Below are positions 15,540 to 38,556 of a stretch of 64,000 nucleotides of DNA, in pieces. Made by a program: the position numbers and the translations under genes. How positions within the stretch are numbered: the stretch's first letter is position 1; the number at the start of each line of letters is the position of its first letter. The notes under the pieces are model-generated. The model saw only the letters and a program-made list of their open reading frames with translations, was not told where the DNA came from and ran no database searches. This stretch comes from Brenneria bubanii (GTDB taxonomy: Bacteria; Pseudomonadota; Gammaproteobacteria; Enterobacterales; Enterobacteriaceae): the NCBI RefSeq assembly GCF_022378355.1, contig NZ_JAKMAJ010000001.1, forward strand, positions 434,001 to 498,000, in the 5' to 3' direction.

Positions 15540-16459
<920 letters not shown>

Positions 16460-22245: not shown

Positions 22246-23019
22246 CTATTCGCTATCCTGACCCGACGCTGCTGGAAACTCAACCCTTTCAAAATCAGGG
22301 AGAATGCCCTGCCAGCCAAACCGCGCCATAACGCCCTGCCATGGCGCATCCCAACGCGCCTGTAGCACAAGATCCTGCCCGCTGACCGGATGCTTCAGAC
22401 TCAGCATGCTGGCATGCAACATCAGCCGCTTGCAGGCGAAATGCGCTCCCATGCCGCGATTCTGCTTCAGATCGCCATGTGCGCTGTCGCCAATAATCGG
22501 ATGACGAAGGTGAGACATATGACGACGCAGCTGATGCTTACGTCCGGTTTGCGGCGCGAGCTCCAGCAGACTGTAACGCGATGTGGGGTAACGGCCGATG
22601 GGCACCGGCATCTCCGCCTGAGCCAGCGTTCGATAATGGCTTACCGCCGGCTGCGGAGCCTTGTCCGGACTGGAATATTTATCGGCGATCTTATCCAGTT
22701 CCTCCGTTAACGCATAATCCACGACTCCATCATTCATGACATAACCACGAACTACGGCATGGTAGATTTTCACCATCTGATGCTGCTCAAACTGTTGGGA
22801 CAGCGAACGCGCCACATCACTGGACAGCGCCAGCAGCAGTACGCCGGATGTCGGTCTATCCAGACGGTGGACCGTATAAACGCGCCGACCAATCTGATCG
22901 CGCACCGTTTGCATCACCACCACCTTCTCTTTACGATCCAGCCAACTACGATGAACCAGCCAACCGGACGGTTTGTTTATTGCGACCAAATGCTCATCCT
23001 GATAAATGATTTCAAGCAT
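22246..23019 (-). CDS. truC: tRNA pseudouridine(65) synthase TruC
   Basis: RluA-family synthase converting U65 of some tRNAs to pseudouridine. The start MLEIIYQDEHLVAINKPSG at 23019 gives 257 residues and the E. coli N terminus. The catalytic Asp is in VHRLDRPTSGVLL, and GRKHQLRRHMSHLRHPIIGD is the C-terminal family motif. The start overlaps the yqcC stop by 8 bp, so translation is coupled. Confidence 0.97.
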   Translation of the reverse strand: MLEIIYQDEHLVAINKPSGWLVHRSWLDRKEKVVVMQTVRDQIGRRVYTVHRLDRPTSGVLLLALSSDVARSLSQQFEQHQMVKIYHAVVRGYVMNDGVVDYALTEELDKIADKYSSPDKAPQPAVSHYRTLAQAEMPVPIGRYPTSRYSLLELAPQTGRKHQLRRHMSHLRHPIIGDSAHGDLKQNRGMGAHFACKRLMLHASMLSLKHPVSGQDLVLQARWDAPWQGVMARFGWQGILPDFERVEFPAASGQDSE

Positions 23020-23365: not shown

Positions 23366-23462
23366 GCGTTTTCTCACCATTAAGGCCGCTTGGCGTTGGC
23401 GGCAAAGCATAGCATTGATAATAGTTTCGCCCAAAATTCACATTTTGGGGCGCTATGCGGGC

Positions 23463-23748
23463 AAAAAAATGGGGGTACTGATTGCTCAGTACCCCCGATT
23501 CGTTTCATAGCTATCCCGCTACACTTTTGCGTCCCTGCTCATCCTTGAAAACTTTTCCTTGATGGTCTTCCTAACCGACAATCCTTGCTGGCGTCCTACT
23601 TTCTTCCTGACTTATCCATCCTGTATCGTCCATGACTTAATCCCTTTAGGCTCCTGCCCCACCGAGATATCCTTCCCAGCTCCCAATCTCCTTCCTGGAG
23701 GTGTCCCTGATTTCATCCTGAAAATCTTTCTATCCCTTTAAACAGCGC
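23463..23748 (-). ncRNA. rsmB: RsmB/CsrB-family regulatory RNA
   Basis: RNA that binds and sequesters the translational regulator CsrA/RsmA. On the minus strand I count about 20 GGA motifs in roughly 285 nt, many as AGGA or GGGA, which are the CsrA-binding signature. The 3' part (TCAAGGATGAGCAGGGA, then ATGAAACGAATCGGG) is nearly the same as the end of E. coli CsrB as I recall it. It ends in a 10-bp hairpin (23471-23496) with seven U residues. It lies between yqcC and syd, the csrB locus in E. coli. The 5' end is inferred from a GATAAT -10 box at 23760-23755. In soft-rot bacteria this RNA controls exoenzymes and virulence factors. It is shorter than the Pectobacterium RsmB I remember (479 nt), so the 5' end may lie further upstream. 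Confidence 0.93.
23464..23496 (-). terminator. rsmB terminator
   Basis: Ten-bp stem GGGGGTACTG/CAGTACCCCC with a 6-base loop, followed on the minus strand by a run of U residues. It sets the RNA's 3' end near 23463. Confidence 0.92.
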
Positions 23749-23940
23749 CTGATAATTATCCTTAAACCTCAAGCAACCGTTCACTAACTTAAGTAATAAG
23801 ATGTATTAATTGTTTGGATTCAGCAAGAGGCAAGTAACAATGTTTATCAATCCGCTTTGGGCAAAAACCGAATAAATAACGTTAATTAACTAATTAATAA
23901 TGAAAAAATAAACATTGCGCGTGATGTTCACGTGAAAGAG

Positions 23941-23978
23941 AAGAGATCTCTCACAGCAAATGTAAGAGATCTCTCACA
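23941..23978. promoter_or_regulatory. two GacA/UvrY boxes upstream of rsmB
   Basis: TGTAAGAGATCTCTCACA (23961-23978) fits the GacA/UvrY box TGTAAG-N6-CTTACA with one mismatch. Read on the other strand it matches the csrB upstream site of E. coli as I remember it. A second half-conserved copy, AGAGATCTCTCACA, ends at 23955. They lie about 200-230 bp upstream of the inferred rsmB start, the usual distance for GacA control of csrB/rsmB. The AT-rich DNA between 23765 and 23930 could hold an IHF site, but I did not identify one. Confidence 0.8.
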
Positions 23979-24005
23979 ACAGTAAAAGTGAAACAGGATT
24001 AATGA

Positions 24006-24554
24006 TTAGACCGTTAACGGGTCTAACTGAGAAAGAAAATCGGCCAGCGTCGGCGCCAACACCTGATGTTTGCTGGTTCCAAACTCTTCCAGAATCACCT
24101 GCCCGGAAATATTGGCAAGCGAAACCATAGTCATTTCGGAGTCGGTTGTCGCCAGAAATAAGGTCGGAGGCAGCTTCAAACGCTTTTGCGTCAGTAAATG
24201 GCCGATCAGATTTTCCTGCATACGCGTGAAGTCTTCCTCACTCCAGGCCTGTAATAAAACACAAGAAATCTCGCCGAATCGGGCCGCCATATCGCCGGAG
24301 TACTGAGACGAATAAAACGCATGGATGTCCGGATGCAGACTGATATCCAGCGCCCGTTCGACGCCATCGAGCCTGGCAGTGGGCGAAAACAGCTGCGGCA
24401 ACCAGTGAACCTCCCCGCCAAGACTTTCAGTAATGCAGGGAGACGGAACGCCGAACAGCGTCTCGCTGGCGGGCGGATGTCCCGTCTCTTGCCGCCATAA
24501 GTCGACATAGCGCTGGGTAAAGGCGGCTAATGCCTGAGGAACCTCATAATCCAT
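24006..24554 (-). CDS. syd: SecY-interacting protein Syd
   Basis: Cytosolic peripheral-membrane protein that binds SecY and helps remove faulty SecYEG translocons. It has 182 residues (E. coli 181). Conserved stretches are [23 protein letters not shown] and [23 protein letters not shown]. No signal peptide. It is divergent from queF and lies beyond the GacA boxes of rsmB, as in E. coli. Confidence 0.97.
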
Positions 24555-30847: not shown

Positions 30848-31038
30848 ACTTCCTGAGCCGGAACGAAAAGTGCGGAGGGGTGACCTGAAGGGCTTTTGGC
30901 TTGTGGTTGTGATGTTGTGTTTGCTATTTTCTTGTCTGCCTGGACGGAGAAGGCAGCCTGGCTGCCTTTTTCAATTTCTGTGCATTTATGTTGTCTTCCT
31001 GACTTTATTACAGCACCGCAGATGCGGTGCTTTTTTTT
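30848..31038 (+). ncRNA. gcvB: small regulatory RNA GcvB
   Basis: Hfq-dependent RNA that represses many peptide and amino-acid transporter mRNAs. The first 23 nt (ACTTCCTGAGCCGGAACGAA and on) match the E. coli start as I recall it. The G/U-rich R1 seed (TGTGGTTGTGATGTTGTGTT, about 30901-30920) is intact. An internal hairpin with five T residues lies at about 30949-30974. The 3' terminator is a 9-bp stem (AGCACCGCA/TGCGGTGCT) and eight T residues. About 191 nt against about 205 in E. coli. It is divergent from gcvA and upstream of ygdI, the conserved locus. Confidence 0.95.

Positions 31039-38479: not shown

Positions 38480-38556
<77 letters not shown>

What the first reader, a model, noticed from the sequence alone, without database searches (positions are those of the whole stretch)
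23463..23978. RsmB/CsrB RNA with a complete GacA-to-RNA regulatory module
A 640-bp space between the yqcC and syd starts has no protein gene. Its minus strand holds about 20 GGA motifs, a CsrB-like 3' end, a strong terminator, and two GacA/UvrY boxes upstream. This locus would tie the GacS/GacA signal to CsrA/RsmA sequestration. The predicted RNA (about 285 nt) is shorter than the Pectobacterium RsmB I recall, so this lineage may use a compact form with fewer CsrA sites.
Basis: partly seen in the sequence, partly recalled or inferred. Interest (0 to 1): 0.7.

Follow-up and report, generated by a model that had tools for sequence, protein, structure and literature searches.

The report
CsrB/RsmB regulatory RNA of a Brenneria
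The segment encodes the ordinary CsrB/RsmB small RNA, which soaks up the global regulator CsrA, and comparison with relatives shows that Brenneria lacks a repeated block of CsrA-site hairpins that its sister genus Pectobacterium carries at the front of the same RNA.

Summary
Window 23461-23820 (minus) matches Rfam CsrB at 201.7 bits (gathering score 71). It is the only such hit in this genome and lies in the E. coli order queF/syd/csrB/yqcC/truC/yqcA. The predicted RNA has 22 GGA; 2 of 2000 dinucleotide shuffles reach that. One perfect and one degenerate UvrY/GacA box lie upstream, 23 bp apart, at the same distance in 36 of 36 Brenneria, Pectobacterium and Dickeya genomes measured. CsrA, UvrY, BarA and CsrD relatives are encoded.

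Corrections: the gap runs from the syd stop to the yqcC start, and the RNA is more likely about 325-327 nt than 285, by box spacing.

"Compact" is partly right. The 5' segment is short (83 nt, 3 GGA), shorter than in E. coli and most relatives measured, but total GGA equals E. coli's (22). Against Pectobacterium the difference is an 18-19-nt tandem array of GGA units: 25 of 25 Pectobacterium, 0 of 10 Brenneria, 0 of 1 Dickeya. The 3' core is nearly constant. A new member of a known family; the array variation is the noteworthy by-product.

The parts
23463..23789 (-). Predicted CsrB/RsmB RNA, 327 nt (5' end uncertain by a few nt, 23787-23790)
   Evidence: Rfam RF00018 match 23461-23820, 201.7 bits; 5' end by box spacing; fold z -2.65 for 23464-23790
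23463..23706 (-). Near-constant 3' core of the RNA (244 nt, 19 GGA), from GGACACCTCCAGGA to the end of the T run
   Evidence: 243-246 nt in 33 of 36 genomes, 241, 242 and 267 in the others; alignment A2, 87% mean column identity
23707..23789 (-). Variable 5' segment (83 nt, 3 GGA); in Pectobacterium this place holds the tandem hairpin array
23463..23496 (-). Intrinsic terminator: stem 23471-23496, T run 23463-23469
23790..23813 (-). 24-nt block ACAATTAATACATCTTATTACTTA, identical in the 35 Brenneria and Pectobacterium genomes compared; presumed core promoter
   Evidence: most of it also served as the anchor, where no genome was lost for lack of it; no sigma-70 consensus promoter found in the gap
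23961..23978 (-). UvrY/GacA box 1, perfect 18-nt palindrome TGTGAGAGATCTCTTACA
   Evidence: same 18 nt as the E. coli csrB site (PMC4682653, passages)
23938..23955 (-). UvrY/GacA box 2, TGTGAGAGATCTCTTCTC, 23 bp downstream of box 1
24006..24554 (-). syd (SecY-interacting protein), upstream neighbour
   Evidence: NCBIfam NF003439, 253.8 bits
23012..23365 (-). yqcC, downstream neighbour
   Evidence: position as in E. coli; no NCBIfam hit
22246..23019 (-). truC, tRNA pseudouridine(65) synthase (start taken from where the NCBIfam match begins)
   Evidence: NCBIfam NF008321, 460 bits

Best explanation
This is the single csrB/rsmB gene of a Brenneria. Phosphorylated UvrY (GacA), driven by BarA (GacS), binds the two boxes about 150-190 bp upstream and activates the promoter at 23790-23813. 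The resulting RNA of about 325 nt ends at the terminator at 23463. It exposes many GGA motifs in hairpin loops and single strands, binds several CsrA (RsmA) dimers and releases their mRNA targets; CsrD probably promotes its decay. Shown here: sequence and model membership, synteny, terminator, conserved boxes at fixed distance, and presence of the protein partners. Inferred from the E. coli and Pectobacterium systems: transcription, UvrY and CsrA binding, CsrD action.
For: Rfam CsrB 201.7 bits over the whole model. Single hit in the genome. E. coli gene order. 22 GGA, reached by 2 of 2000 shuffles. Box 1 with 0-1 mismatch in 36 of 36 genomes, at -188/-189 from the aligned start; box 2, 23 bp later, in 36 of 36 with 2-4 mismatches. 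The E. coli csrB 5' end lies 191 nt after the start of the same box, and a UvrY site with this sequence centred at -183/-182 is reported from ChIP-exo with footprinting (PMC4682653, passages). CsrA, UvrY 82%, BarA 61% and CsrD 53% are in the genome.
Against: No transcript data. No sigma-70 consensus promoter was found and no conserved IHF-consensus site (14 of 36 genomes scanned). Covariation within Brenneria, Pectobacterium and Dickeya is weak because the core hardly varies: 5 of 58 pairs show a change on both sides, in one sequence each. About the first 100 model positions align poorly to Rfam.
Confidence: 0.96

Rival explanations
1. The same gene, but the functional species is a shorter RNA of about 259-285 nt, because transcription starts later or because the 5' segment is processed off, as recalled for Pectobacterium RsmB'.
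For: The conserved part begins at about 23721-23707 and the segment before it varies freely. A 259-nt RsmB' is recalled for Pectobacterium strain Ecc71; the primary papers are not held.
Against: The invariant 24-nt block at 23790-23813 and the fixed spacing to the boxes place the promoter further upstream. The E. coli spacing gives 23787.
Confidence: 0.2
2. Pectobacterium-style direct repression of this gene by KdgR, binding inside the transcribed region, also operates here.
For: KdgR, 87% identical to E. coli KdgR, is encoded in the genome. KdgR is said to repress rsmB transcription directly in Pectobacterium (PMC7843439, passage); that it binds inside the transcribed region is recalled.
Against: With the recalled core TGAAACNNNGTTTCA and at most 2 mismatches, the window RNA has no match; 3 of 10 Brenneria, 23 of 25 Pectobacterium and 0 of 1 Dickeya have one. 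All Pectobacterium matches lie in the 5' segment that holds the array absent here.
Confidence: 0.15
3. Chance purine-rich intergenic sequence with a terminator belonging to syd, not an RNA gene.
For: A terminator after syd would be expected anyway; UvrY-like boxes with 2 mismatches are common by chance.
Against: E-value 1.6e-56 to the CsrB model; conservation of core, boxes and block across the genomes compared.
Confidence: 0.01

Closest known systems
CsrB of Escherichia coli (Rfam RF00018)
   Same: Same locus and gene order, the same 18-nt UvrY palindrome, nearly the same box-to-start distance (191 nt; aligned start here 189), same core and terminator type, same total of 22 GGA.
   Different: About 327 against 369 nt; 3 GGA before the core against 8, and 19 in and after it against 14. 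The second box has 3 mismatches here against 5 in E. coli, counted by eye. No CsrC over the cut-off in this genome or in the other 9 Brenneria genomes.
RsmB (AepH) of Pectobacterium
   Same: Same promoter block, both boxes, near-identical 3' core of about 243 nt with 17-18 GGA.
   Different: Pectobacterium has a 5' array of 18-19-nt GGA units (25 of 25 genomes) that Brenneria lacks (0 of 10). Predicted lengths 386-513 nt; 4 of 25 come out at 479 nt, the recalled published length for strain Ecc71.
rsmB of Dickeya (one genome)
   Same: Short 5' segment (96 nt, 3 GGA), no array, both boxes.
   Different: Longer distal part (267 nt as measured, because the first T run of 5 comes later) and a different 5' sequence.

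Membership tests
CsrB/RsmB RNA (RF00018) | Covariance-model score above the family's gathering score | tested here: met
   201.7 against 71 bits, full length 1-356
CsrB/RsmB RNA (RF00018) | Many GGA motifs, enriched over composition | tested here: met
   22; dinucleotide shuffles 13.8 +/- 2.3, 2 of 2000 reach 22
CsrB/RsmB RNA (RF00018) | GGA presented in hairpin loops | tested here: inconclusive
   Simple stem search: 10 of 22 GGA sit in a loop of a stem of 4 or more pairs; fold z -2.65; covariation weak
CsrB/RsmB RNA (RF00018) | Intrinsic terminator at the 3' end | tested here: met
CsrB/RsmB RNA (RF00018) | Locus between syd and yqcC as in E. coli | tested here: met
CsrB/RsmB RNA (RF00018) | Upstream UvrY/GacA palindrome at conserved distance | tested here: met
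   E. coli site in PMC4682653 (passages)
CsrB/RsmB RNA (RF00018) | UvrY-dependent transcription | not testable with these tools
   needs RNA data
CsrB/RsmB RNA (RF00018) | Binds and sequesters CsrA | not testable with these tools
   CsrA gene present; binding needs an assay
Pectobacterium-type RsmB with 5' hairpin array | Tandem 18-19-nt GGA units behind the promoter | tested here: not met
   No tandem array in window 23400-24010 or in 10 Brenneria; present in 25 of 25 Pectobacterium
CsrC RNA (RF00084) | Score above the gathering score | tested here: not met
   No match in this genome at E 0.001; 0 of 10 genus genomes over the cut-off

The most novel reading that the evidence does not exclude
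The CsrA-binding capacity of RsmB in soft-rot enterobacteria is set by the copy number of an 18-nt hairpin unit, inserted between a fixed promoter and a fixed core. The unit junctions at the same time form KdgR-type operators. Pectobacterium built up this array after its split from Brenneria, while Brenneria, this genome included, kept a 5' segment poor in CsrA sites and lost or never gained direct KdgR control of the RNA.
Probability: 0.3. Interest if true: 0.5.

Novelty: new member of a known kind. Interest (0 to 1): 0.3.

Why it matters
It places the GacS/GacA-Csr output RNA in Brenneria, a genus of tree pathogens (recalled). One keyword search of the held library for Brenneria, rsmB, csrB, CsrA and RsmA, at least two of the five, found 713 papers and listed 15; two of the 15 hold the word Brenneria, once each, and I opened neither. 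The comparison turns 'RsmB length varies' into a concrete, testable variable: copy number of an 18-nt CsrA-site unit, with box spacing and core nearly constant. Three literature searches touching RsmB length, processing and repeats (10 of 78, 6 of 6 and 12 of 32 papers listed) showed no title or abstract start on such an array. That is weak evidence, since much of the primary literature is not held.

Tried and rejected
IHF site between boxes and promoter: consensus WATCAANNNNTTR (recalled) with 1 mismatch allowed, in 14 of the 36 genomes, gives scattered, non-conserved hits; not claimed. A sigma-70 consensus promoter: none found, against 1.6 expected in shuffles; the promoter is inferred from conservation and spacing only.

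Covariation as proof of structure: weak in this set, so the Rfam score carries that point. A second Csr RNA: seven weak CsrC hits of 20.9-24.7 bits in 5 of 10 genomes (none in this one), none over the cut-off. Six are short matches to the 3' part of the model, and one (G002, full model length) overlaps that genome's csrB; rejected.

Rechecking one search showed that 18 of the 20 other family members measured there besides the Dickeya have 6-18 GGA before the core, so the 5' segment here is poor against the wider family too.

Rows dropped: one search was run on partly unoriented loci (those showing no anchor) and is superseded, 5 sequences without the anchor were left out (none is Brenneria or Pectobacterium). 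Only one Dickeya genome was measured. In one search the predicted lengths and downstream GGA counts of L011, L022 and L023 are meaningless because the terminator T run was missed; only their 5' segments are used.

Literature: Liu 1998 and Liu 1999 (RsmB length, processing, KdgR binding) are not held. The figures 479 nt and 259 nt and the KdgR core are recalled. The UvrY palindrome was read from the window and recalled, then seen in PMC4682653. Papers opened only as found passages: PMC4682653, PMC3376562, PMC4710047, PMC6418279, PMC3856055, PMC7843439, PMC5442451, PMC7826290, PMC7814964.

Full report
What is there. The minus strand of window 23461-23820 matches the Rfam CsrB/RsmB family over the whole model with 201.7 bits (gathering score 71, E 1.6e-56). 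It is the only CsrB hit in the window's genome of 4.89 Mb in 533 contigs. By the Syd protein the best-matching named genomes are Brenneria alni (82%) and a Brenneria sp. (79%), followed by Pectobacterium and further Brenneria mixed (72-76%; one Pectobacterium reaches 80% over its best segment). The genome search groups the window with nine genomes of one genus, five of which match named Brenneria loci exactly over csrB. The window is therefore a Brenneria. Upstream lies syd (24006-24554) and downstream yqcC, truC and yqcA, all on the minus strand, with queF and ppnN divergent. This is the E. coli csrB neighbourhood (yqcC by position only, it has no NCBIfam hit).

Is it more than chance. The predicted RNA has 22 GGA against 13.8 +/- 2.3 in dinucleotide shuffles (2 of 2000 reach 22), 1 on the opposite strand, and at most 13 in any other stretch of equal length sampled in the window. 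It folds better than 100 of 100 shuffles, z -2.65. The terminator is an 11-bp stem, then A and 7 T.

Where the RNA starts. Both UvrY/GacA boxes were measured in 10 Brenneria, 25 Pectobacterium and 1 Dickeya genome. Box 1 begins 188 or 189 nt before the aligned start point in 36 of 36, with 0 or 1 mismatch to TGTRAGN6CTTACA; box 2 follows 23 bp later in 36 of 36, with 2 to 4 mismatches. In E. coli the annotated csrB 5' end is 191 nt after the start of the identical box. The ChIP-exo and footprint study of E. coli (PMC4682653, passages seen) reports this 18-nt sequence centred at -183/-182 with a partial repeat 5 bp downstream. Transferring the spacing gives a 5' end at 23787-23790 and an RNA of about 325-327 nt. 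The same rule gives exactly 479 nt in 4 of 25 Pectobacterium genomes, the length I recall as published for Ecc71 RsmB; that paper is not held. A 24-nt block directly upstream, ACAATTAATACATCTTATTACTTA, is identical in the 35 Brenneria and Pectobacterium genomes. Most of it served as the search anchor, but no genome was lost for lack of it. It is the presumed core promoter, although no sigma-70 consensus is found.

The pathway. In the genome: one CsrA, a UvrY relative 82% identical to E. coli UvrY, BarA 61%, CsrD 53%. No CsrC passes the cut-off in any of the 10 Brenneria genomes, so CsrB is probably the only RNA of this kind here. The mechanism (BarA/UvrY to CsrB to CsrA release) is inferred from the characterised relatives.

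Is it a compact form. The RNA splits into two parts. From GGACACCTCCAGGA to the T run the length is 243-246 nt in 33 of 36 genomes (241, 242 and 267 in the others), with 16-19 GGA in all 36. Before it, the 5' segment is 62-118 nt with 2-4 GGA in 10 of 10 Brenneria, 96 nt with 3 GGA in the Dickeya, and 143-270 nt with 4-11 GGA in 25 of 25 Pectobacterium. In 20 further family members, E. coli among them, with the start set by box spacing, 18 have 117-232 nt with 6-18 GGA; the other two (L024, L025), whose promoter block resembles the one here, have 69 and 95 nt with 4 and 2 GGA. The 5' segment here is thus short and poor in GGA against the wider family as well. Total GGA: 19-22 in Brenneria, 21-28 in Pectobacterium, 22 in E. 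coli, because the Brenneria core carries more (19 here, 14 in E. coli).

The Pectobacterium array. The excess in Pectobacterium is a tandem array of an 18-19-nt unit, about TTTCAGGAAGAAACANNG, detected by Tandem Repeats Finder in 25 of 25 Pectobacterium, 0 of 10 Brenneria and 0 of 1 Dickeya, with about 3 to 10.8 copies. A unit can form a short hairpin with GGA in its loop; in Pectobacterium GGA number rises with segment length (r 0.95). The short segments of Brenneria, the Dickeya and L024/L025 make a build-up in Pectobacterium the simpler reading, but no species tree was made, and loss of 5' sites in an earlier ancestor followed by re-expansion fits too.

A possible consequence. The unit junctions read about GAAAC-N3-GTTTC, the core I recall for KdgR operators, and KdgR is stated to repress rsmB directly in Pectobacterium (PMC7843439, passage). 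Matches with at most 2 mismatches occur in 23 of 25 Pectobacterium, 3 of 10 Brenneria (not in the window) and 0 of 1 Dickeya. KdgR itself is present here, 87% identical to E. coli KdgR. Because the pattern overlaps the hairpin stems, such matches are partly expected from the array alone; this is a lead, not a result.

Verdict. An ordinary, well-supported member of CsrB/RsmB in Brenneria. The interesting by-product is the copy-number variable 5' array of its sister genus.

Noticed in passing
window 30848-31038 (+): GcvB small RNA, 105.5 bits (gathering score 42).
   Followed up: no
window 16292-16395 (-): t44 RNA, 82.5 bits (gathering score 44).
   Followed up: no
window 38480-38553 (+): A tRNA gene (Rfam, 59.8 bits).
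   Followed up: no
   Followed up: partly
   Followed up: no
window 23773-23784, +6 to +17 of the predicted RNA: 24 of 25 Pectobacterium and 4 of 10 Brenneria have the perfect palindrome GTAACCGGTTAC here; L014 has GTTACCGGTAAC, changed on both sides, and the window has GTGAACGGTTGC, whose ends can still pair with wobble. Operator or 5' hairpin, unexplained.
   Followed up: partly
Pectobacterium csrB loci L083, L084, L087-L109: 5' tandem array of 18-19-nt GGA units in 25 of 25 genomes, about 3 to 11 copies.
   Followed up: yes
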